In this document: positions 5,276 through 16,460 of the stretch, one piece after another
Layout of the letters: every line of letters starts with the position of its first letter
Numbering within the stretch: the first letter of the stretch is position 1
From: Phototrophicus methaneseepsis
GTDB taxonomy: Bacteria; Chloroflexota; Anaerolineae; Aggregatilineales; Phototrophicaceae
DNA: 64,000 nucleotides
Direction: 5' to 3'
Assembly (NCBI RefSeq): GCF_015500095.1
Contig: NZ_CP062983.1
Location: forward strand, 1,364,001-1,428,000
Made by a program: the position numbers and the translations under genes
Notes under the pieces: generated by a model
Seen by the model: the letters and a program-made list of their open reading frames with translations, nothing else
Told to the model about the DNA's origin: nothing
Database searches by the model: none

Positions 5276-6343
5276 CTACACTTCTTCGTAGAGTCCATTT
5301 GATAGCGGCCAGGTCGGCAGCACATCGAAGCTGAGGTCACTGCGCAGGCCCGCCTCATAGCGGAAGTAACCCGCAGCCGCGATCATAGCGCCATTGTCGG
5401 TGCACAGGTTCAGCGGCGGATAGCGCACGGGTAGGTCTGTCTCTTTGCGCATCTTCTCGCGCAGTAGTTGGTTCGCGCTGACGCCCCCCGCCATGAAAAT
5501 TTCAGTCGCCCCATAAGCCTTGGCTGCACGAGCCGCTTTCTCAACGAGAATATCCGTTACAGCGACCTGGAAGCTGGCGGCCACATCGTTCACGCTGACG
5601 TCACTACGAAGCTGAGCACGTTTCTCAGCGCCCCGGCGGCGGCGACTGCGCGAGCCGCTTGGCGGCACAGTGACTTCGCGGCGCACAGCCGTCTTAAGCC
5701 CGCTGAAGCTGAAGTCATAGCTGCTGTCGCGTAAAGCCCGTGGGAAGTCGTAAGCATGGGCGTTGCCCATCTTGGCGACGCGCTCAATATTCGGCCCACC
5801 GGGGAAGGGTAAATTCAGCAATCGCCCGACCTTATCGAAGGCCTCACCAGCCGCATCGTCAATGGTGCCCCCCAGCCGTTGGTATTGGCCGTGTCCGGTC
5901 ATGAGCAGCAGCTCGCTGTGTCCGCCGCTGACGATCAACACCAGCACCGGGAATTCAGGCTCTGCAAAGGGCTGCGTCAGCCACAGGGAATAGATATGGC
6001 CTTCCAGGTGATTGATGCCTAAAAGGGGCTTGCCACTCATGAGCGCTAACCCTTTAGCGTAGTTGATGCCCACCAGCAGCGAGCCGACCAATCCCGGCCC
6101 TTGCGTCACGGCGATAGCGTCGATCTGCTCATAGGCGATACCAGCGTCGTTCACAGCCTGGTCCACCACGCTGTCGATAGCTTCTACATGGGCACGGGAG
6201 GCCAACTCCGGGAAGACACCCCCGTGCTTGGCGTGCAGGTCAATCTGGCTGGCGACGATGTTGCTGGCGATGGTCTTGCCATCAATCACAACCGCTGCCG
6301 CCGTCTCATCACAGGAAGATTCAATGCCGAGGATATAGGTCAT
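5276..6343 (-). CDS. tsaD: tRNA N6-adenosine threonylcarbamoyltransferase TsaD
   Basis: TsaD (Gcp/YgjD/Kae1 family) transfers the threonylcarbamoyl group to A37 of ANN-reading tRNAs, working with TsaB, TsaE and TsaC made elsewhere. The 355-residue chain opens with the canonical ILGIESSCDETAAAVV. It has the metal-binding pair in HLEGHIYSLW (residues about 113-122), the ASKHA phosphate loop VSGGHSELLL and the late GGVSANQLLREKM motif. An Arg-rich stretch of about 15 extra residues (around SRSRRRRGAEKRAQ) lies between FSGLKTAVRREV and VAASFQVAV, where most homologs have a shorter linker. The start is fixed by the conserved MTYILGIESS. Confidence 0.97.
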   Translation of the reverse strand: MTYILGIESSCDETAAAVVIDGKTIASNIVASQIDLHAKHGGVFPELASRAHVEAIDSVVDQAVNDAGIAYEQIDAIAVTQGPGLVGSLLVGINYAKGLALMSGKPLLGINHLEGHIYSLWLTQPFAEPEFPVLVLIVSGGHSELLLMTGHGQYQRLGGTIDDAAGEAFDKVGRLLNLPFPGGPNIERVAKMGNAHAYDFPRALRDSSYDFSFSGLKTAVRREVTVPPSGSRSRRRRGAEKRAQLRSDVSVNDVAASFQVAVTDILVEKAARAAKAYGATEIFMAGGVSANQLLREKMRKETDLPVRYPPLNLCTDNGAMIAAAGYFRYEAGLRSDLSFDVLPTWPLSNGLYEEV

Positions 6344-6471
6344 AGGGATTTGCAGCTACCAGACTGTTTTCACTGTGGGATAGAATGCCGCTAGTTTACC
6401 AGATTTAGCGCATAAGTATCACCCAAGTAGCTCTGTTGGGTATCACATGCTGGGACCGTACACCTAGTAAT

Positions 6472-6594
6472 ATTCGCATAAATTCTCTTGAGCGCAAGCT
6501 GTTATTGTTGAAAATTCATTCTTCCGGCCCGATGGGGTCGCTGCTCGCCAGCCTGGATATTTCGCGCCAATCCTATCTTAACGAAATATACTAA
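6472..6594 (+). pseudogene. Decayed fragment of an IclR-type regulator gene (N-terminal HTH)
   Basis: This stretch reads LERKLLLLKIHSS...LLASLDISRQSYLNE before a TAA at 6592. It matches the start of the intact regulator at 8291 (VERTLLLLEMLRA...LLASLDISRSSLF). At DNA level 19 bases are identical (CCGGCCCGATGGGGTCGCT, 6524-6542 against 8356-8374). A further 14 bases are identical (AGCCTGGATATTTC, 6550-6563 against 8393-8406). The fragment has lost 11 bases between these blocks and has a compensating frame change before the first. It has no ATG, and nothing resembling the rest of the gene follows. It is best read as a relic of a duplication or of a replaced homolog. It occupies most of the 304-base gap between tsaD and the next gene; the remaining bases are AT-rich with nothing recognisable. 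Confidence 0.75.
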
Positions 6595-6647
6595 TTTACA
6601 TCGATATTATGAAGGTAGTTATCTAGTTCACTGAAAGAATTTCTCTG

Positions 6648-8168
6648 ATGAGACAGTTCGTCGCAACCTTTTTGATAATGATATTAGTGGCAACAACAGC
6701 TATTTTTACGACTGCGCAAGAACCTTGGCTTGTGAAGGAACAATGCATCGGTGACCTTACTTATCCTCTTGTTAGCAAAGGTCACTGGGATTTCCCAGGC
6801 GTCATTATCAGCACCGTTGATATTGATGGCATTCGTGCTGCTCGTGGCGATCAAAATGTAGATTACTGGCTGGCAATGGCCGCACCCGATTCCTACCCGT
6901 TTTCCGGTAGTTTATCGCCTGATGGCTTTTATTTTGCCTTCCCGGTAGGGCATATGGATTACGATGTCAACACCATAGGCAGTGAGATCGCTAGTATTGA
7001 TTATGTGCGCATCGTCCGTACCGATGGGATAACCGATGAAGTCTATCGTTTTCCGGCGTCTGGCCAGGATTTTGTATCGATGGATATCATACCGCCTGGT
7101 TTTGCACCTGTATTGTGGCTTGGTACAGATCGCGTGTACTATCAAAATCAGCAACTCGCCTCAGGCGCAAATATCTACGACTTGGTGCAGGATATTTATC
7201 CGGCTCAATGGCCCTATCAGAATTACCCAGGTGCATTTCTGTCATTTTCACCGAACTTGATGAGAGCATTTCAGTTCGATGAATCCTTAGGCCAATACGA
7301 TGAAATCAGCAGTTACCGCCTCTATGACTTTGAGACAGGCCAACAACTCGATGCGATGTTGCCTCAAAATATAGTCTGGCTGCATGATTCATCTGCGTAC
7401 GTGGCGTCTGATGAGACTGGACTATCGCTCCTGGATGACGATGGCAATCTCCTAGAGGCAATCAGCGCTGATAAAGCTTTGAGCATAGCCGTGTCTCCAG
7501 ATGATGGCAGGATCGCTTATCGGAATCAAGATAACAAGCTGTTCCTGGTGGATTTGGAAGAAAAAGTTGTCTACGATATGTGCTTCTCATTCTCAGAGAA
7601 TACGGAATCGTTTCCTGCAACAGTACAAAATCTTGCATGGTCGCCAGACGGCTTCAATCTCGCCTTTAGCTACGATGGCTATCTTGTTATCCTCGATATG
7701 CGAACGCTAGTGAATCAGGTTATTGATACACGGTCGAGCAGGGTTATCGGTTGGGTACCTCTGGAAGGCGACACAATCGAAACAGTATCGTCAGATTTCT
7801 ACTGGCCGACAGCGACGTTTACGCCGACTCCAACACCTACTTTTACGCCAACCCCGCGTCCTACCATGACTTTGGTGCCGACTGCGACGTTCATGCCGAC
7901 GCCGACTATCGACCCCACTTTACTCAGTTGCCAACTAAATGTGCTTACGGGGGTTAACTTACGCGCTGGGGCTGGCTCAGATACGGAAAAAGTCGGCAGT
8001 GCTGCGGAAGGCTTTCAGCTTGTAGCAACAGCACAACAATTTAACGCGGCTGAAGGATTTACCTATTGGCAACTCAACACAGGCGAATGGATCCGCGAAG
8101 ATTTTGTCCGTGAAGATGATTTATGTCAGGCTCTGCCTCAAGTGGATGTAGAAGCGGCGGGACAGTGA
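6648..8168 (+). CDS. Secreted beta-propeller protein with C-terminal SH3b domain
   Basis: A 506-residue exported protein. Residues 1-24 are a Sec signal peptide (FLIMILVATTAIFTTAQ). Residues 40-385 are a degenerate TolB/WD40-like propeller, with the strands SPDGFYFAFPVG, VSPDDGRIAYRNQDN and AWSPDGFNLAFSYDG each fitting a PD40-type blade. Residues about 390-424 are a Pro-Thr-rich linker of repeated TPTP units, and residues 425-495 are a bacterial SH3 domain (VNLRAGAGSDTEKVGS ... WIREDFV). SH3b domains usually bind peptidoglycan or cell-surface polymers, so it may be retained at the envelope. No enzyme motif is seen. It is a single gene with its own AT-rich upstream region. Confidence 0.75.
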   Translation: MRQFVATFLIMILVATTAIFTTAQEPWLVKEQCIGDLTYPLVSKGHWDFPGVIISTVDIDGIRAARGDQNVDYWLAMAAPDSYPFSGSLSPDGFYFAFPVGHMDYDVNTIGSEIASIDYVRIVRTDGITDEVYRFPASGQDFVSMDIIPPGFAPVLWLGTDRVYYQNQQLASGANIYDLVQDIYPAQWPYQNYPGAFLSFSPNLMRAFQFDESLGQYDEISSYRLYDFETGQQLDAMLPQNIVWLHDSSAYVASDETGLSLLDDDGNLLEAISADKALSIAVSPDDGRIAYRNQDNKLFLVDLEEKVVYDMCFSFSENTESFPATVQNLAWSPDGFNLAFSYDGYLVILDMRTLVNQVIDTRSSRVIGWVPLEGDTIETVSSDFYWPTATFTPTPTPTFTPTPRPTMTLVPTATFMPTPTIDPTLLSCQLNVLTGVNLRAGAGSDTEKVGSAAEGFQLVATAQQFNAAEGFTYWQLNTGEWIREDFVREDDLCQALPQVDVEAAGQ

Positions 8169-8180
8169 ACTGGCTCACAA

Positions 8181-8203
8181 CCTAACCTTATGACGGGGTT
8201 GGG
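8181..8203 (+). terminator. Weak terminator-like hairpin
   Basis: CCTAACC (8181-8187) pairs with GGTTGGG (8197-8203), one pair being G-U, around a 9-base loop. It starts 13 bases after the propeller gene stop. A pyrimidine-rich run follows rather than a clean T tract, so this is only a candidate. Confidence 0.35.
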
Positions 8204-8227
8204 ACCAATCTTCTAACTCCCTCTTGC

Positions 8228-8289
8228 GGATGCGGCTAAAGTTCGGTATTTTGGACCAAAGTCCAAGATAGCAGACTGAAGCCGCATCC
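8228..8289 (+). promoter_or_regulatory. Predicted structured leader or operator of the regulator/ABC operon
   Basis: A perfect 10-bp inverted repeat (GGATGCGGCT, 8228-8237; AGCCGCATCC, 8280-8289) encloses 42 bases. Inside is a second perfect hairpin, TTGGAC-CAAA-GTCCAA (8251-8266). The right arm ends one base before the ATG of the regulator gene at 8291, where a ribosome-binding site would normally sit, and none is visible. As RNA this would form a two-level stem that sequesters the start region. As DNA it could be an operator. It does not match the conserved cores of the FMN (RFN) or TPP riboswitches that I could recall. Confidence 0.55.
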
Positions 8290-8290
8290 T

Positions 8291-9403
8291 ATGCCAGCAC
8301 AAGAGACTATTCCCTCCGTTGAGCGCACGCTGTTACTGCTGGAAATGCTGCGTGCCCGGCCCGATGGGGTCGCTTTACAGGATTTACTTGCAAGCCTGGA
8401 TATTTCCCGCAGTTCGCTCTTTGCGCTGCTGAACACGTTGAAGCACCTGGGCTATGTGGAGCAAGCCGACAAGCGCGGCCATTATTACCCCGGCCCTCGC
8501 TTGCAAGCCTGGAGCCAATCCAGCACCTTCCCACAGCAAGACCAGATTTCCGCCTTCTACCACGAAGCCAATGCCATCACCTGCCAGGAGACGCTTGCCC
8601 TGGCGGTACCTGTGCCGCAGGGGAGCGTCGTCATCGCCCAGGTAGAGAGCCCGCAGCATGTGCGCAGTGTCTACGCCATGGGGCAGGTCCACGACCAGCC
8701 CACGGCCTGTGCCGCCTATGACGTCTTGCACGCGCCCTCGCCAGAGGTGAAGCAGTATGGTTTTGCCCAGCGCTGCGATGATGACAGCGTCGAACTGGCG
8801 CTGCCAGTCTGTGCGGATGGCTCCCGCGCAGATTATGCTTTGCTCTTTAGCGCGCCCGCTTTTCGTATGCATGATGACTTGCTGGATGAAGTGCTGCCGA
8901 TGCTGCGTGAGATGGCTGCTCGCCTGTCTTATCGGCTGGGTGCGCCAGCCTATACACCTTACCAGGCTCAAACAGACCTCAACCCGACCATGCCCATGCA
9001 GCCGGAGCAGATCGACGCCTTTTTACGCGGTCCCTGGACGGCGCGCCTGGCCTGCTTACGCGATGACCAGACGCCGCATGTGGTGCCCGTCTGGCAGCAG
9101 TGGGATGGCCAGAATTTCCATGTCATCGCCTGGCGTGGCTCCCAATGGGCAAATTATGTCATGGCACAGCCCCAGGTATCTATCACCGTGGATGAGCCGT
9201 GGCCGCCTTTCCGCCGGGTGACGGCGCGGGGCGTCGCATATGCCCTGCAACCCCATACCGCAAGCTATGATGGCTTGTTGCAAAGCCTGCATCGTCGCTT
9301 CTTGGGGGACCAGCCTTTTGTGGAAGGTCAACTGCCGATTGCGCAGGCCTTCCGCATAGAGCCGGAAAAAGTACGCGGCTGGCGAGGGATGCCCGTCCGA
9401 TGA
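8291..9403 (+). CDS. IclR-type regulator fused to a PNPOx-like split-barrel domain
   Basis: A 370-residue three-part protein. Residues 5-70 are an IclR-type winged helix (SVERTLLLLEMLRARPDGVA, then LLASLDISRSSLFALLNTL). Residues about 85-220 look like a shortened IclR effector domain (ETLALAVPVPQGSVVIAQVE, then LPMLREMAARLSYRLG). Residues 235-365 are a pyridoxamine-5'-phosphate-oxidase-like split barrel (FLRGPWTARLACLRDDQTPH, VVPVWQQWDGQNFHVIAW, VRGWRGMPVR), a fold that usually binds FMN, F420 or a similar cofactor. The gene overlaps the next ABC ATPase by 4 bases (ATGA), so it is translationally coupled to the importer and probably regulates it. The fused barrel suggests flavin or vitamin sensing, which is an inference. 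A decayed relative of its 5' end lies at 6472-6594. Confidence 0.8.
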   Translation: MPAQETIPSVERTLLLLEMLRARPDGVALQDLLASLDISRSSLFALLNTLKHLGYVEQADKRGHYYPGPRLQAWSQSSTFPQQDQISAFYHEANAITCQETLALAVPVPQGSVVIAQVESPQHVRSVYAMGQVHDQPTACAAYDVLHAPSPEVKQYGFAQRCDDDSVELALPVCADGSRADYALLFSAPAFRMHDDLLDEVLPMLREMAARLSYRLGAPAYTPYQAQTDLNPTMPMQPEQIDAFLRGPWTARLACLRDDQTPHVVPVWQQWDGQNFHVIAWRGSQWANYVMAQPQVSITVDEPWPPFRRVTARGVAYALQPHTASYDGLLQSLHRRFLGDQPFVEGQLPIAQAFRIEPEKVRGWRGMPVR

Positions 9404-10197
9404 GAGTGCAAATAGACGGTCTGAACCATACATTTCAGCAGCGGCCTCCGCTTAGGGCGCTGGATGACATTGCGTTGGATGTCGAGAGTGGCGAGTTCGT
9501 CGCTATGATTGGGCCAAGTGGCTGTGGTAAATCGACGTTGCTGCGTCTGGTAGCTGGCTTAGCCACGCCCACGCAGGGCATGATCTCGCTTGATGATCAG
9601 CCCCCACAGCAGATCGCCAGCGAGAAGCGCATCGCCTGGATGTCGCAGCAGGTGGCGCTGCTGCCCTGGCGCACAGTCCGCACCAATATTGCCCTGGCCC
9701 AACAGATTAATCCACAGCCTAAACGCCGCAGCCGCACAGTGGATGATTTGCTTGATCTGGTTGGCCTGCGAGAATTCGAGGATGCATATCCGTTTACGCT
9801 TTCTGGCGGGATGCAGCAGCGCGTTGCCCTGGCGCGTACATTGGCCCTCGGTGCCGATCTATGGCTGATGGATGAGCCTTTCGCCGCGCTAGACCAGCTC
9901 ACGCGTGATCAACTGGTGGTCGAAGTGTTGGAATACTGGCGTAAGCTGCACCCGACTGTGCTGTGGGTGACGCATCAAATCCAGGAAGCGGTGCTATTAG
10001 CCAACCGTGTGCTGGTGATGACGCCGCGCCCAGCCCATATTTATGCGGATGTGCCCGTTGATTTACCGTACCCGCGTGATGATACCTCGCGCGATTTTCA
10101 GGCGCTTGTACGCCAACTTAGAGAAACCATTGCTGCCGGGATGCAATTTCATCATGACGCTCAAAATCACATCCAAAATGACGGTCAAATTCGATAA
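9400..10197 (+). CDS. ABC transporter ATP-binding protein (SsuB/TauB/ThiZ type)
   Basis: The energy-coupling ATPase of an NMT1/THI5-type importer, 265 residues. Visible motifs are Walker A GPSGCGKST near residue 38, the Q-loop around SQQVALLPW, the signature LSGGMQQRVALART, Walker B LWLMDEPFAALD and the switch His in WVTHQIQEA. The profile is that of the nitrate/sulfonate/pyrimidine-precursor group. It starts inside the stop of the regulator gene and overlaps the permease gene by 44 bases, so the operon is tightly packed. Confidence 0.92.
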   Translation: MRVQIDGLNHTFQQRPPLRALDDIALDVESGEFVAMIGPSGCGKSTLLRLVAGLATPTQGMISLDDQPPQQIASEKRIAWMSQQVALLPWRTVRTNIALAQQINPQPKRRSRTVDDLLDLVGLREFEDAYPFTLSGGMQQRVALARTLALGADLWLMDEPFAALDQLTRDQLVVEVLEYWRKLHPTVLWVTHQIQEAVLLANRVLVMTPRPAHIYADVPVDLPYPRDDTSRDFQALVRQLRETIAAGMQFHHDAQNHIQNDGQIR

Positions 10198-10942
10198 CAA
10201 TCTCTTGGTGACGATTGCGTTGATCGTGGGGCTGCTTGCCCTGTGGGAAGGCATCGTCACGCTGCAACAGATTCCTGTTTATATCGTGCCTGCGCCCAGC
10301 CGCGTGCTGACCACCTTGTTTAACAATCTGGGCTACTTCGCAGATGCCCTGCTGGTCACCGTGAGCGAAGCGCTGATTGGCTTGTTTATAGGCACGTCTG
10401 TGGGCGTGTTGTTGGCGAGCCTGCTTTCACTGCGCCCGAATCTGGAACGCGGCATTATGACGCTGGCGGTCTTCGTGAAGTCCACACCGCTGGTGGCGAT
10501 TGCCCCTCTGCTCACGATCTGGCTGGGCTTTGGTATGGCACCCAAGATTATCCTGACGGCTTTGCTGACCTTCTTCCCGGTGCTGGTGAATGTCTTCAGC
10601 GGCCTCAGCCGCGCTGATGTGGCCCTGCTGGATACCTTGCGTTCCTGGCATGCCAGCCGATGGGAGATTTTCTGGCATGTGCGCATGCCAGGTGCGCTGC
10701 CATATTTGTTTGCCGCCCTCAAAATTAGCGGTCCACTCTCCTTAATTGGGGCTGTGGTCGCGGAATGGACAGGGGCTTCTCAGGGAATAGGCAAAGCGAT
10801 GTGGCTGGCGTATAGCAACCTCAATATGCCATATCTCTTCGCCGCGATCTTCATTCTGGCGTTCGTCGGCCAATTTGTCTACAGCATCACCCTATGGCTG
10901 GAACGTCGTTTCGTCTTCTGGCAGCCCGTGGCGGAGGCCTAA
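10154..10942 (+). CDS. ABC transporter permease (BPD_transp_1, NMT1/THI5-type system)
   Basis: The membrane subunit, about 262 residues and six TM helices from this start. The EAA-type cytoplasmic loop that docks on the ATPase is visible as LLDTLRSWHASRWEIFWHVRMPGALPYL. The frame is open further upstream, within the ATPase gene. I prefer the ATG at 10154 (MTLKITSKMTVKF) because it places the first TM helix about 20 residues in; an ATG at 10178 is also possible. The sequence belongs with SsuC/ThiX/RibX-type permeases. The substrate cannot be read from it. Confidence 0.88.
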   Translation: MTLKITSKMTVKFDNNLLVTIALIVGLLALWEGIVTLQQIPVYIVPAPSRVLTTLFNNLGYFADALLVTVSEALIGLFIGTSVGVLLASLLSLRPNLERGIMTLAVFVKSTPLVAIAPLLTIWLGFGMAPKIILTALLTFFPVLVNVFSGLSRADVALLDTLRSWHASRWEIFWHVRMPGALPYLFAALKISGPLSLIGAVVAEWTGASQGIGKAMWLAYSNLNMPYLFAAIFILAFVGQFVYSITLWLERRFVFWQPVAEA

Positions 10943-11050
10943 TTCCGTTTTTCTTAAAGATGTGTCGTGGTACGGCGTGCTGAGCCACTTTGAATCGCAC
11001 CTGCGGGCTACGTCACGGATTTCATTCATTCAACGCTCTAAGGAGTTTGT

Positions 11051-12115
11051 ATGCACACTCGCTCTCGTCTGTTATTTTTCGTCGTCGTGCTGGCCTTAGC
11101 GCTGGCAGTCGTGCCCACCTTCTCCCAGGAAGATGCACCGGAAGAACCCGCCGAGTTAACGCCCTTCACGTTTATGGCAGGCTATATTCCCCAGGCGAAT
11201 TTGCCTTTTGTTGGTGTGTATGTCGCTAAGGAAATGGGCTATTTTGAAGAAGAAGGCCTTGATGTGATGATCGAGCATGCGACCGGGGGCGGACACTTGC
11301 AGTTGGTCACGACGGGCGAGGTCCAGGTGACGACACAGGACGCCGCTGTGTTGCTGCAACGTGTCGCAGACCCCGGCCTGCCGTTGGTTTCGCTCGCACT
11401 GATCGGGCAGCGGGGACAGCAGGCCTTTGCTGCATTGGCGGATTCTGGCATGGAAACGCCCGCTGATTGGGCGGGGCATATCGTTGGCTATAAAGGCACG
11501 CCCCCGCCGGATCTGTTCGCGCTGCTGGATGTCTTTGACCTGACAGAGGATGATATTGAACTTGTTGATGTTGGCTACGATCCGCGTATCCTGACGGAGG
11601 GCCGCGTGGATGTGTACCCGTTGTTCCGCTCCAATGAGCCAGATACGATCGCGAGTTGGGGCTATGACATCACCCTGTGGGATGCGGCAGATTATGGTGT
11701 GCCGACCCTGGGCCTGACCTATGTGACCAGCCAGCAAACATTAGCTGAGCAGCCAGAGGCTTTGACGGGCTTCTTACGAGCTGCACTGCGTGGCATCGAA
11801 TACGCCACAGAAAACCCGGATGAGGCTATCGAGATAACGCTCACCTATGCCGGGCCGGAGGCAGATCCTGACCATCAACGCTTTATGCTGGAAAGTGAAC
11901 TGCAAGATGCACAGAGCGATTTCACAGAAGCTTATGGCGTGGGCTGGCAAACGCTCGAACAATGGCAATCGCTGGCGGATATGCTGGCGACCTACGACAT
12001 CACCGTACCAGAAGACGTCGAGAGCGTTTTCACAACGGATATGCTTGCAGCGATCTATGATGTGGATGTGGACGCCTTGGAAGCAGAAGCAACAGCAACA
12101 GAAGAGAGCGAATAA
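11051..12115 (+). CDS. ABC transporter substrate-binding protein, NMT1/THI5-like
   Basis: An exported binding protein of 354 residues. A signal peptide occupies residues 1-25 (LLFFVVVLALALAVVPTFSQ) and an acidic linker follows. The NMT1/THI5 fold starts at TFMAGYIPQANLPFVGVYVA and continues with KEMGYFEEEGLDV, the family landmark. Relatives bind pyrimidine precursors of thiamine, sulfonates, nitrate or, in Chloroflexota, possibly riboflavin (RibY). The ligand here is undetermined. AAGGAG lies 7 bases before the ATG. A 108-base gap separates it from the permease gene. It is the last gene of the operon, with a strong terminator 10 bases after the stop. The Glu/Thr-rich tail is unstructured. Confidence 0.88.
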   Translation: MHTRSRLLFFVVVLALALAVVPTFSQEDAPEEPAELTPFTFMAGYIPQANLPFVGVYVAKEMGYFEEEGLDVMIEHATGGGHLQLVTTGEVQVTTQDAAVLLQRVADPGLPLVSLALIGQRGQQAFAALADSGMETPADWAGHIVGYKGTPPPDLFALLDVFDLTEDDIELVDVGYDPRILTEGRVDVYPLFRSNEPDTIASWGYDITLWDAADYGVPTLGLTYVTSQQTLAEQPEALTGFLRAALRGIEYATENPDEAIEITLTYAGPEADPDHQRFMLESELQDAQSDFTEAYGVGWQTLEQWQSLADMLATYDITVPEDVESVFTTDMLAAIYDVDVDALEAEATATEESE

Positions 12116-12124
12116 CGGCTAAGT

Positions 12125-12155
12125 AAGAGGGGCACCCTATGACGTGCCCCTCTTT
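12125..12155. terminator. Strong terminator after the NMT1/THI5-type ABC operon
   Basis: An 11-bp perfect stem (AAGAGGGGCAC, 12125-12135, with GTGCCCCTCTT, 12144-12154) has an 8-base loop. It is A-rich on the left and T-rich on the right, so it can serve both the plus-strand operon and the converging minus-strand gene. Confidence 0.85.
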
Positions 12156-12165
12156 ACATAATAGG

Positions 12166-12588
12166 CTACGAATCCGGGTTGGTCGCCTTCATATGATCAA
12201 CGGATTTCTTCACTAATTCGCGCAGTACATCCAGATCAATATCCTCGACCTTATTGATATACAGGCAGGATTTCCCCGTTTTATGCTTGCCGATTTTGCT
12301 CATAAGGTCATCGTAATCATCGAAGCCAGCCATAATATACAGTGAGAGATTTTGCTTGCGTGGCGCAAACCCGGCCAGCATCCAATCGCCTTCACGCCCA
12401 CTGGCGTAGCGATAATGATAGCTGCCGAATCCAATAATGCTTTCGCCCCACATCACAGCTTCTTCCCCCGTGACCTCTTCCATCAGTTCCAATATGGTAA
12501 ACGCATCTTCGCGCCGCTTTTCATTCTCAACCTGAGATAAAAACGTGCGTACATCGCCATCATGGGGTTGTGTTTTGATCTCTGCCAT
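12166..12588 (-). CDS. DUF1801 domain protein (YdhG-like)
   Basis: A 140-residue soluble protein with the DUF1801 pattern. It has an N-terminal helical region, then EEAVMWGESIIGFGSYHYRY, then a beta part with LAGFAPRKQNLSLYIMAGF. The C-terminal lysine-rich segment is GKHKTGKSCLYINKVEDIDL, followed by a final helix. The fold is related to YdhG/frataxin-like proteins and its biochemical role is not known. A second, different DUF1801 gene lies at 45547. The gene converges with the ABC operon. Confidence 0.85.
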   Translation of the reverse strand: MAEIKTQPHDGDVRTFLSQVENEKRREDAFTILELMEEVTGEEAVMWGESIIGFGSYHYRYASGREGDWMLAGFAPRKQNLSLYIMAGFDDYDDLMSKIGKHKTGKSCLYINKVEDIDLDVLRELVKKSVDHMKATNPDS

Positions 12589-12679
12589 TACGGTTTGCCC
12601 TCTCTATGCCAACATAAACAGCGTAGCACAGATATTCTAATTTTCAAAGCAGACTCGTTACAGCGTATGTGATGCACCC

Positions 12680-13384
12680 TCATTCATAATACGCCGGCAG
12701 CTTTTTCAGCCCCTCCCACTGTTCTGGATCATGCCCAAAAATTACCTGCTCGATATGTTCCCGTTCCACCAGATCGAGCAATTTCACTGTACTGGCGTGG
12801 ATTGCTTCGGCATCCGGGTCGCTGCCGTCGTCCTGTAGGTCACGGGTAAAACCCTCGCTGAAAGGCACAGCATCAACCGTTAATAAAATGGTCCCCGTTT
12901 TGGGCAGCCGCACCAGCACCGACTGATGCCCCGGCACATGCCCGCTTGTCTCGATCAGTTCTAGCCCTGGCAGCAGCTCCGTGTCCCCGTCCACGAGTCG
13001 TATCCTCTCGATTGGCTGATCCCATTCAGAACGAATGGGCGCGTAGCGTTTGTTGCTCGCCGCATCCAGATGATGCAGACGCTGAACAACATACTGCGCC
13101 TTTGTGAATGCTGCGTGTCTTCCGGCATGGTCGCCATCGTAATGTGTCGAAATAACGGTATCAATATCTTCTGGTTTTAAGCCAATGCTCGCCAATTGTT
13201 CGATGACATCCCGCCCATTCTCGAACTCGGATTCCTCTTCAGGTATCACTTCCGGTAGACCACTATCAATCAGAATATTCTTACCGTCATCCGTTTGCAC
13301 CAGATAGCACACAACCGGAATGTGATATTCCGGCATGGACCCAACCTGCATCAGATAAAGCCGCTTCACAGCATTCTGGCTCAT
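12680..13384 (-). CDS. Metallo-beta-lactamase-fold hydrolase, AHL-lactonase-like
   Basis: A 234-residue MBL-fold protein closest in layout to N-acyl homoserine lactonase-like enzymes: LYLMQVGSMPEYHIPVVCYLVQ, then ILIDSGLP. The metal site reads STHYDGDHAGRHA, that is HxDxDH. The middle His of the usual HxHxDH is Asp. Further ligands are in SGHVPGHQSVL, LLTVDAVPF and VIFGHDPEQW. The substrate is unknown, and lactonase activity is only suggested by family. GGAG lies 7 bases before the ATG. It stands between a DUF1801 gene and the glycosyltransferase block without obvious linkage. Confidence 0.82.
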   Translation of the reverse strand: MSQNAVKRLYLMQVGSMPEYHIPVVCYLVQTDDGKNILIDSGLPEVIPEEESEFENGRDVIEQLASIGLKPEDIDTVISTHYDGDHAGRHAAFTKAQYVVQRLHHLDAASNKRYAPIRSEWDQPIERIRLVDGDTELLPGLELIETSGHVPGHQSVLVRLPKTGTILLTVDAVPFSEGFTRDLQDDGSDPDAEAIHASTVKLLDLVEREHIEQVIFGHDPEQWEGLKKLPAYYE

Positions 13385-13549
13385 AATCTACTCCCAGAGA
13401 TTGAAACATATATTCTATTATAGTGAGGGTAGCGGTTGTAAGGAAGTGGGACGAGGAAAAAGAATATAAATAAGCGTAAATCAGGGGCATGCTTCGTTGC
13501 GGCAGTCTTGATCGCTCATAAAACCATGACGCCACCTTCAAAGCGGAGA

Positions 13550-14884
13550 CTAGGCGCGGGGTTGCCGGGCCTTTTGCCACAGCATCGCCAGTGGGACGGC
13601 AGCCAACATCCAGAAAGCGATCTGTGTTGGGAAGACGTAGCGCGGCAGGGCAATGAGGACGCTGTGCAGCAGGGTCGTATACAGGATGAAGCCACCTAAC
13701 ACCGTCATGACCTGCCAGCGACGGCGTGCGAACCACATGCCCGCCAACCCGAGCAAGATGCCGCCAAAGTGAAAACCATACATGAGCGCTTTCAGCCAGA
13801 AGTGATCGCCCTGAGTGACAGCGCCTAATCCGGCCAGCGTGCGATCATTGCACCACCAATCCGTTACAAGCTGTCGCAAGCTCTCGCCACCAAGGGTCGT
13901 TGTTCCAGCCGGTGTCAGATAAGCATCGGCTAGTTCACGAACACGCAGGGTGATATACCCGCCAAAATCGTCCGCGATGGCTTCAACGGCGGCTTCGCCC
14001 GGTGTCGTCCCTTCGAGCTGAGCGTCATTTTCGTGGGGTGCGCCATCCGTTGTGACGGCACCGCGCCAAAAAGCAGGTGTGAACTGGTCTGAGACGATCA
14101 CAAAGCGCTGATATAGCACCCAGTTGTGCGCTGTCCATGTGCCGATCATTAGCCCATAAGCTGCCAACAAAACGAGCGCGCCGCGCCACCATCGCGCTCG
14201 ACTGATGAGCAGCATATGGAAGACAATGCCCACCGGGAACAACAGCAGCACCGCCCGTGTCAGCGTCCCCAGGCCGAACACAGCCCCAATCAGCAGCAGG
14301 ACAGGCCAGCGTGGGCGCTCGTTTAAGGCAAACTGGGGCACGACGTAATCAACATAGAGCCAGATGGCCGCGAAGACGAAGAAAATATAGCTCGATTCCG
14401 TCAGAATATGGCCTGCTTCTCGGATGAGTTCGGGATTAATCGCCAGGGCGAATGCGGCGATGAGGCCTGCGGCTTCGCTGTGTATCCGTCGCCCGACGCG
14501 ATAGCCAAACCAGCAAACAGCCGTACCCATCACAGCCTGCATGACCCAGATACCTGTAATTGCTGCGGCGGGCGGCAGCGCCATTTGCCACCAGCCCACC
14601 AGGTAGAGATAGAGCGGCGGCGTGGGGAGGGCTTTACTGAGGAACGGCAGCACATAATACTGATCTTCGAAAGCGACCCATAAGCGCCCTGCTACCTTGC
14701 CACTCGTTAACCCTATGCCATTAATCAGATACCAGACAGTATCCCCACCATCGATGAGATAGGCATTCAACGGGGGCAAACCCAGCACATAGATCAGCCG
14801 CAGCCCCAATGCCAGGAGCAATACACCCCATATCCAGCGGGAGTAGGTGCGTGGGAAGTCGTGGGCCGGATTAGTCGCTTGCAT
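13550..14884 (-). CDS. GT39-type membrane glycosyltransferase
   Basis: A multi-pass protein of 444 residues from the ATG at 14884 (MQATNPAHDF), which overlaps the 3' end of the upstream GT39 gene by 14 bases. The frame is open further upstream, but that part lies within the neighbour and is not coding-like. The N-terminus has a TM helix followed by the loop NAYLIDGGDTVWYLINGIGL, whose acidic pair takes the place of the catalytic Asp region of ArnT/PMT-type enzymes. About ten more helices follow. Such enzymes use polyprenyl-phosphate sugars on the outer face of the membrane. The acceptor is unknown. It is translationally coupled to its upstream relative, suggesting a joint glycan step. Confidence 0.82.
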   Translation of the reverse strand: MQATNPAHDFPRTYSRWIWGVLLLALGLRLIYVLGLPPLNAYLIDGGDTVWYLINGIGLTSGKVAGRLWVAFEDQYYVLPFLSKALPTPPLYLYLVGWWQMALPPAAAITGIWVMQAVMGTAVCWFGYRVGRRIHSEAAGLIAAFALAINPELIREAGHILTESSYIFFVFAAIWLYVDYVVPQFALNERPRWPVLLLIGAVFGLGTLTRAVLLLFPVGIVFHMLLISRARWWRGALVLLAAYGLMIGTWTAHNWVLYQRFVIVSDQFTPAFWRGAVTTDGAPHENDAQLEGTTPGEAAVEAIADDFGGYITLRVRELADAYLTPAGTTTLGGESLRQLVTDWWCNDRTLAGLGAVTQGDHFWLKALMYGFHFGGILLGLAGMWFARRRWQVMTVLGGFILYTTLLHSVLIALPRYVFPTQIAFWMLAAVPLAMLWQKARQPRA

Positions 14885-16460
14885 CGGCAGTATCAGGATG
14901 GATGGCATACAGTTCGATAGGGGACTGGCTTCCGCGGGGGATCGCTGCTGCCAGTTCGAAGTGCGGGTCTGGCTCAGCACGCCCCCCATAGAAAGCATCC
15001 AGGTCAGACCATGCTGTCGGCAGCATCACATAATCAATCGCGTATCGCTCGGCAGCGGCGAGGACGTCCTCTATGCTGTGATAGGGTACGACCACGCTGC
15101 GAATACCATAGTAGCGCAGCATGAAGGGGTCCTGTGCCATCAGCTGGATGTCACCGTCGCCAGTGATATCGGGCAGGGCAAGGGCTGTCTCTGAGATGTC
15201 TTTCATAGAGGCATAATAGGCATCGTTGAAGGCCGTATCCAGCCGCACTGTATCCCAGGCCAGGGCTGCGCTCCATATGACGATCAAAACTGCCGTCATC
15301 ACTTGCCAACGAGGATTGCTCACCGCGGTATGGATGGCATAAGCGGCGATTGGCAGCAGCATTGGCAGCAGGCTGACGTAAGCCGTTCTAAAGCTGCCAG
15401 CCTGGTTGTAATATGGCAAAAGGAAAGGATAGACGACCAGTGTCACCAGCAGCACGATTAACACAGGGGCCACAGGCAGACCATGCGCGAGGTCTCGCTG
15501 TTGGATCATCAACAGGATACCCCCTGCGATGAGTAAGGGCAGCACAGGCGATGCAAAGGTCGCCATTTGCTTAAAAGACGCTGCCAGTTCGAATAAGCGC
15601 TTGCTGATGATGGCCCCAATGCCCTGGTCCAGCCAGGTATTGACGGTAATAGGGTCGTCGTAAGTATAGACTTCTTCGTAAGTCGTCATCAGCATGACCT
15701 TCGTGGTGGCGCTGGTGCCAAGCTCGCCCAATACCTCGATATTACGTATCAGCCAGGGGGCCACTGTGAGCAGAGCCACCACAGGCACCAGCACTATCCG
15801 CAGCCAGTGCACCCGATAACCATAATAGCTACCCCAGCGCGCCACAATGAATACCATCAATACAATCATAGGTGCCAGTAAAAGGGCATCGTTGCGATTG
15901 AGATACGCCAGCCCGATGCATAAACCACATAACGCATATTGCCACCAACGCCCGTGCCGCAGGGCAGCGATCAGGGCGAGCATGGCACCACCATAACACC
16001 AGATTTGTGGCAGCGTCGTTAGCGGCCTCAAAGACTGCCATACGATCTCTGGGATAGCCACAGATAGCGCCGCCGCAATCAGTGATGTGCGGATGTCCAG
16101 CGTCATCTGGCGGGCAGCAGCATAGACGAGCAGCGGCAGCGCGGCCCCCATCAGGACAAAAGGCAGTATCGCGGCCCAGTGATTGATGCCAAACAGGCTC
16201 ATGCTTGCGGCGACGAGGGTCCCGGTTAAAGGCATCCAATGATCCGTCGGATGCTCGATTTGCGCTGGCATCGTATTGTAGTGCCAAACATAATCAATGC
16301 TGTAGCCATGACCCCCGACGAGCCGCGTGCCCAGGTTGTAATAATGCAGGGCGTCGTGCAGGCCAGGGTTGTGCACCATCGGCATCAGCGAGAGCCGCAG
16401 CAGCAGCGCCAACCCACAGATGAGCAGCAGGATGCCATGATGTTTTTGCAGACGGGGCAA
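14871..16460 (-). CDS. GT39-type (PMT_2) membrane glycosyltransferase
   Basis: A 529-residue protein with an N-terminal TM helix, then the extracytoplasmic loop HNPGLHDALHYYNLGTRLVG, where an Asp takes the catalytic place of PMT/ArnT-type enzymes. About ten further helices follow, then a soluble C-terminal domain from about residue 410. The start is TTG at 16460, supported by GGAGG 6 bases upstream. No ATG in the N-terminal region precedes the first helix. It probably transfers a sugar from a polyprenyl carrier to a surface glycan or protein. It is the first of two overlapping GT39 genes, downstream of the Ser/Thr kinase gene. Confidence 0.85.
   Translation of the reverse strand: MPRLQKHHGILLLICGLALLLRLSLMPMVHNPGLHDALHYYNLGTRLVGGHGYSIDYVWHYNTMPAQIEHPTDHWMPLTGTLVAASMSLFGINHWAAILPFVLMGAALPLLVYAAARQMTLDIRTSLIAAALSVAIPEIVWQSLRPLTTLPQIWCYGGAMLALIAALRHGRWWQYALCGLCIGLAYLNRNDALLLAPMIVLMVFIVARWGSYYGYRVHWLRIVLVPVVALLTVAPWLIRNIEVLGELGTSATTKVMLMTTYEEVYTYDDPITVNTWLDQGIGAIISKRLFELAASFKQMATFASPVLPLLIAGGILLMIQQRDLAHGLPVAPVLIVLLVTLVVYPFLLPYYNQAGSFRTAYVSLLPMLLPIAAYAIHTAVSNPRWQVMTAVLIVIWSAALAWDTVRLDTAFNDAYYASMKDISETALALPDITGDGDIQLMAQDPFMLRYYGIRSVVVPYHSIEDVLAAAERYAIDYVMLPTAWSDLDAFYGGRAEPDPHFELAAAIPRGSQSPIELYAIHPDTADASD

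What the first reader, a model, noticed from the sequence alone, without database searches (positions are those of the whole stretch)
6472..6594. Decayed copy of the IclR-type regulator 5' end, 1.8 kb upstream of the intact gene
Identical blocks of 19 and 14 bases, and conserved peptide LLASLDIS, link this intergenic stretch to the gene at 8291. An 11-base loss and frame changes show decay. It records an earlier duplication or a former regulator at the locus, and a gene finder would not report it.
Basis: seen in the sequence. Interest (0 to 1): 0.5.

Follow-up and report, generated by a model that had tools for sequence, protein, structure and literature searches.

The report
Decayed partial copy of regulator gene
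A stretch of about 80 bases between two genes is a worn-down partial copy of the DNA-binding part of a regulator gene lying 1.8 kb downstream; it is an ordinary gene fossil, useful mainly as a trace of how this variable stretch of the chromosome was put together.

Summary
Window 6488-6567 aligns with 8319-8410 at 69 of 79 ungapped positions, in direct orientation, 1,831 bp apart. Apart from itself, the intergenic stretch has one genomic hit below E 0.4: this gene (E 3.5e-8). The match covers codons 10-40 of the regulator, the core of its IclR-type helix-turn-helix. Extension towards the start codon or downstream is not significant, and no remnant of the gene body was found. Indels of +1, -2 and -11 shift the middle block out of frame and then restore it; the frame ends at a stop at 6592-6594 and has no Pfam match. 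The intact gene is an IclR-HTH/PNPOx-like fusion heading an ABC-transporter operon. At E <= 1e-12 it is the only full-length match in 98 family genomes, while 39 of 396 class genomes matched at E <= 1e-20. In the one other genus member held, homology after tsaD stops about 83 bp before the fragment. Best reading: a pseudogene fragment of a second copy, at the left edge of a lineage-variable segment. Truncated duplication versus former full regulator cannot be decided. Low interest.

The parts
6488..6567 (+). decayed partial copy of the regulator's HTH-coding stretch (codons 10-40)
   Evidence: 69 of 79 aligned bases identical to 8319-8410, with indels of +1, -2 and -11; E = 3.5e-8 in the own genome
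6409..6594 (+). 61-codon stop-to-stop frame that contains ERKLLLL and LLASLDIS; not proposed as a gene
   Evidence: no Pfam match even at E <= 10, no NCBIfam match
8291..9403 (+). intact parent or sister gene: IclR-type HTH fused to a PNPOx-like domain
   Evidence: Pfam HTH_IclR E 1.2e-11 and PNPOx_N E 5.6e-12
8319..8410 (+). segment of the intact gene that is repeated at 6488-6567
8251..8266 (.). palindrome TTGGAC-CAAA-GTCCAA upstream of the intact gene, possible operator; no comparable copy found upstream of the fragment
   Evidence: only exact match in the own genome; form YTGGAYN4RTCCAR upstream of 7 of 19 distinct orthologues, no shuffle control for that count
6648..8168 (+). propeller-like gene lying between the two copies
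   Evidence: open frame; no Pfam match; weak TolB-propeller match, 19.2 bits, far below that model's cut-off
5276..6343 (-). tsaD, conserved left anchor
Evidence: 90% identical protein in the same-genus genome G001; flanking homology ends at about 6405.
9400..12115 (+). ABC transporter genes (ATPase, permease, NMT1/THI5-like binding protein) behind the intact regulator
   Evidence: a permease homologue in the downstream flank in 19 of 19 distinct orthologue loci examined

Best explanation
The stretch is a non-functional remnant of a second copy of the regulator gene's HTH-coding part, in direct orientation 1.8 kb upstream of the intact copy, with the propeller-like gene between them. Shown: homology, limits and frameshifts. 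Inferred: the copy arose when this lineage-variable segment was assembled next to tsaD, or later by a local duplication, was truncated, and has since drifted under no constraint on its protein.
For: Score 68 against a shuffle maximum of 29 in 1000. The only significant genome-wide partner is the gene 1.8 kb away. It scores 68 against this gene and at most 32 against 20 orthologue loci (19 distinct), which suggests that it split from this lineage's own gene (alignment scores only, no tree). It shares the S of LLASLDIS with the gene; by eye in the list, 1 of 19 distinct orthologues (L081) has S there. Frameshifted middle block, and a stop codon ending 27 bases after the match. No Pfam match of the open frame. 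Neither strand of 6440-6647 folds better than shuffles: z +0.95, 166 of 200 at least as good on the plus strand; z +1.75, 194 of 200 on the minus strand. Two Rfam matches, E 0.09 and 0.15, both far below gathering scores, neither over the fragment. The flank shared with G001 ends at about 6405, so the fragment lies inside the variable segment.
Against: The net indel is a multiple of three and the surrounding frame stays open for 61 codons. Synonymous changes are somewhat over-represented: 6 of 10, P = 0.08, or 7 of 11, P = 0.035, depending on where the gap is placed. Both could mean that it was once, or still is, translated. No relative carrying the fragment was found, so loss of constraint cannot be tested directly.
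Confidence: 0.85

Rival explanations
1. It is the last piece of a formerly complete second regulator (paralogue or displaced allele) that stood next to tsaD and evolved as a working gene for a while before it was broken, perhaps when the propeller-like gene arrived by one-sided recombination at the regulator. This is a sub-case of the best explanation.
For: Weak excess of synonymous changes; both copies in the same orientation upstream of one operon; the regulator is sporadic in the class (39 of 396 genomes at E <= 1e-20), so repeated arrival is possible.
Against: No trace above chance of codons beyond 40, of the PNPOx part or of the transporter genes between 6344 and 8290; no operator-like palindrome upstream of the fragment.
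Confidence: 0.35
2. The fragment makes a short peptide (for example 20 residues from the ATG at 6532 to the stop ending at 6594) that interferes with the regulator.
For: Open frame and in-frame LLASLDIS.
Against: No Shine-Dalgarno-like stretch visible in the 20 bases before 6532 (reading); no Pfam match; only a short piece of an HTH would be made.
Confidence: 0.03
3. The fragment is transcribed from the minus strand and its RNA pairs with the regulator mRNA over the 19- and 14-base identical blocks, as a pseudogene-derived antisense RNA.
For: A promoter-like site on the minus strand at 6613-6585 points into the fragment.
Against: Promoter-like sites are at chance level (2 found, 1.2 expected); no terminator-like site in 6250-6750; the minus strand folds no better than shuffles.
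Confidence: 0.03
4. Chance similarity or convergence of two HTH coding stretches.
For: HTH codons recur in genomes (10 PF09339 matches in the own genome).
Against: E = 3.5e-8 at the DNA level with no second significant partner genome-wide; shuffles never came near; the 19-base identical block lies out of frame in the copy.
Confidence: 0.005

Closest known systems
Bacterial pseudogene fragments and truncated gene duplicates (general class; recalled, no paper read)
   Same: Partial, frameshifted, direct-orientation copy beside its intact source, in a lineage-variable segment
   Different: Nothing distinctive; only about 80 bases are recognisable
IclR-family transcription regulators (intact copy 8291-9403)
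   Same: HTH_IclR domain by Pfam
   Different: The IclR_C effector domain is only marginal (19.3 bits, cut-off 24) and a PNPOx-like domain follows at the C-terminus

Membership tests
Pseudogene remnant of the gene at 8291 | Significant DNA homology to the intact gene | tested here: met
Pseudogene remnant of the gene at 8291 | Coding capacity destroyed (frameshifts, truncation) | tested here: met
   indels of +1, -2 and -11; similarity ends at codon 40 of 370; stop codon ending at 6594
Pseudogene remnant of the gene at 8291 | No purifying selection on the remaining codons | tested here: inconclusive
   6 of 10 or 7 of 11 changes synonymous, P = 0.08 or 0.035; no relative with the fragment found
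Complete former regulator gene | Traces of start, promoter/operator or gene body | tested here: not met
   no significant upstream or downstream extension, no body remnant above chance, no operator-like palindrome; such traces could have decayed past recognition
IclR family (for the fragment) | HTH_IclR domain match in a translated frame | tested here: not met
   the 61-codon frame has no Pfam match at E <= 10; also not among the 10 PF09339 places of the own genome, where 150 of 179 candidates were scored
IclR family (for the gene 8291-9403) | N-terminal HTH_IclR and C-terminal IclR_C | tested here: inconclusive
   HTH met (E 1.2e-11); IclR_C 19.3 bits, below its cut-off of 24
Structured or catalogued RNA | Rfam match or unusually stable fold | tested here: not met

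The most novel reading that the evidence does not exclude
The fossil has been kept as a regulatory element: a minus-strand RNA or a short peptide from the partial copy tunes the intact IclR-PNPOx regulator in trans through its identical blocks.
Probability: 0.03. Interest if true: 0.5.

Novelty: new member of a known kind. Interest (0 to 1): 0.1.

Why it matters
By itself little: it is a good example of a short gene fossil, and it marks the left edge of a segment gained or exchanged next to tsaD. It also points to a sporadic IclR-PNPOx/ABC cassette, some of whose members share an upstream palindrome; that deserves more attention than the fossil.

Tried and rejected
Upstream homology beyond 6488: extension reached by 21 of 120 and 43 of 300 shuffles, rejected. 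Downstream homology beyond 6567: reached by 61 of 300 shuffles, rejected (one search had tested this from an ill-placed anchor). Further remnants of regulator, ATPase, permease or binding protein in 6344-8290: only chance-level matches. A decayed operator upstream of the fragment: best 4 mismatches, reached by 154 of 500 shuffles. A regulon of the palindrome: allowing 2 mismatches the own genome has 112 places, fewer than the 244 of the reversed control pattern, so no enrichment. RNA: no credible Rfam match or stable fold. A second copy of their own 5' end upstream of the orthologues: 19 of 20 loci had enough upstream sequence (L064 too short); matches, where present, were short, best E 0.023 in a tiny search space. 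The fragment in the flanks held of propeller-gene homologues: none at E <= 1 in L082-L088. Two literature searches (no paper; 17 papers, 10 listed, I saw titles and abstract starts only) gave nothing on this locus or on the fusion regulator; no paper was opened. The codon count had an off-by-one error in its blocks; one search replaces it.

Full report
Observation. Local alignment of 6344-6648 with 8169-8900 joins 6488-6567 to 8319-8410: 79 aligned bases, 69 identical, with indels of +1, -2 and -11 (6+5 or one gap of 11 by gap costs). The score of 68 compares with a maximum of 29 in 1000 dinucleotide shuffles and 27 for the best other place in the window. In the whole 5.63 Mb genome the intergenic stretch hits itself, the gene (E = 3.5e-8) and three places at E = 0.42. 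Comparing the window with itself by blastn (word 11) gives this as the only repeat pair at E <= 1e-3.

Limits. The match covers codons 10-40 of the 370-codon gene. A permissive alignment runs further on both sides, but these extensions do not beat shuffles: upstream 21 of 120 and 43 of 300 do as well, downstream 61 of 300. No other part of the regulator or of the transporter genes is found in 6344-8290 above chance.

Decay. ERKLLLL and LLASLDIS share a frame. RPDGVA between them lies in another frame, because +1 and -2 shift it and -11 shifts it back. The frame is open from 6409 to 6594 without a convincing start, and its translation has no Pfam match even at E <= 10. Of the substitutions 6 of 10 (P = 0.08) or 7 of 11 (P = 0.035, other gap placement) would be synonymous in the gene. 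That is a weak hint that the two copies parted while still coding, and not enough to build on.

Origin. The intact gene is an IclR-type HTH followed by a PNPOx-like domain. Behind it lie an ABC ATPase, a permease and an NMT1/THI5-like binding protein. Relatives are sporadic in the class: 39 of 396 genomes matched at E <= 1e-20, counting the own genome; some of these matches are partial, and at most 5 candidates per genome were scored. In the window's family only the own genome has a full-length match at E <= 1e-12 (1 of 98; the 23 other matches begin at residue 188 or later, i.e. mainly the PNPOx part). At E <= 1e-5, in 40 relatives, HTH-only and PNPOx-only matches also appear, none full-length. 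A permease homologue lies in the roughly 1.5 kb behind the regulator in 19 of 19 distinct loci examined, drawn from 38 other class genomes with a match. The fragment scores 68 against this gene and at most 32 against the 20 orthologue loci, which suggests that it came from this lineage's gene and not from a distant relative.

Setting. Only one other genome of the genus is held (G001). Its tsaD is 90% identical and the flank stays alignable to about window 6405. Beyond that, in the 14 kb of G001 fetched, blastn at E <= 1e-5 finds nothing more until the gene at 13550-14998. The fragment, the propeller-like gene and the transporter genes thus lie in one lineage-variable segment, with the fragment about 83 bases inside its left edge. 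I did not look at the tsaD neighbourhood in the other 96 family genomes. The propeller-like gene is sporadic too: 10 of 98 family genomes, the own included, match at E <= 1e-10 with at most 15 candidates scored per genome, and one match besides itself is near full length (46% identity). No similarity to the fragment was found in the flanks held of its homologues L082-L088.

Function. The fragment has no operator-like palindrome upstream, no Rfam match near a gathering score, no fold better than shuffles on either strand, and promoter-like sites at chance level. A working role is not excluded, but nothing speaks for it beyond an open frame and one weak minus-strand promoter-like site.

Verdict. 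Observation confirmed; interpretation as a decayed copy supported. The choice between truncated duplication and remnant of a former full regulator stays open, with the lack of any other remnant favouring the former and the codon pattern weakly favouring the latter. It is an ordinary kind of gene fossil.

Noticed in passing
window 8291-9403: The intact regulator joins an IclR-type HTH to a C-terminal PNPOx-like (flavin/F420-type) domain and sits next to an NMT1/THI5-type ABC transporter; 39 of 396 class genomes matched at E <= 1e-20. It may be a cofactor-sensing regulator of uptake of a vitamin-like compound (inference).
   Followed up: partly
window 8251-8266: Perfect palindrome TTGGAC-CAAA-GTCCAA just upstream of the regulator, the only exact copy in the genome; the form YTGGAYN4RTCCAR occurs within at most 200 nt upstream in 7 of 19 distinct orthologues, four of them from one genus label (L075-L078). 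Candidate autoregulatory operator.
   Followed up: partly
window 6406-13550: Variable segment between conserved tsaD and a conserved glycosyltransferase-like gene (label from reading, no call); the same-genus genome G001 carries different genes there.
   Followed up: partly
window 6421-6441: Inverted repeat ACCCAA-N9-TTGGGT between tsaD and the fragment, seen by eye; not tested.
   Followed up: no
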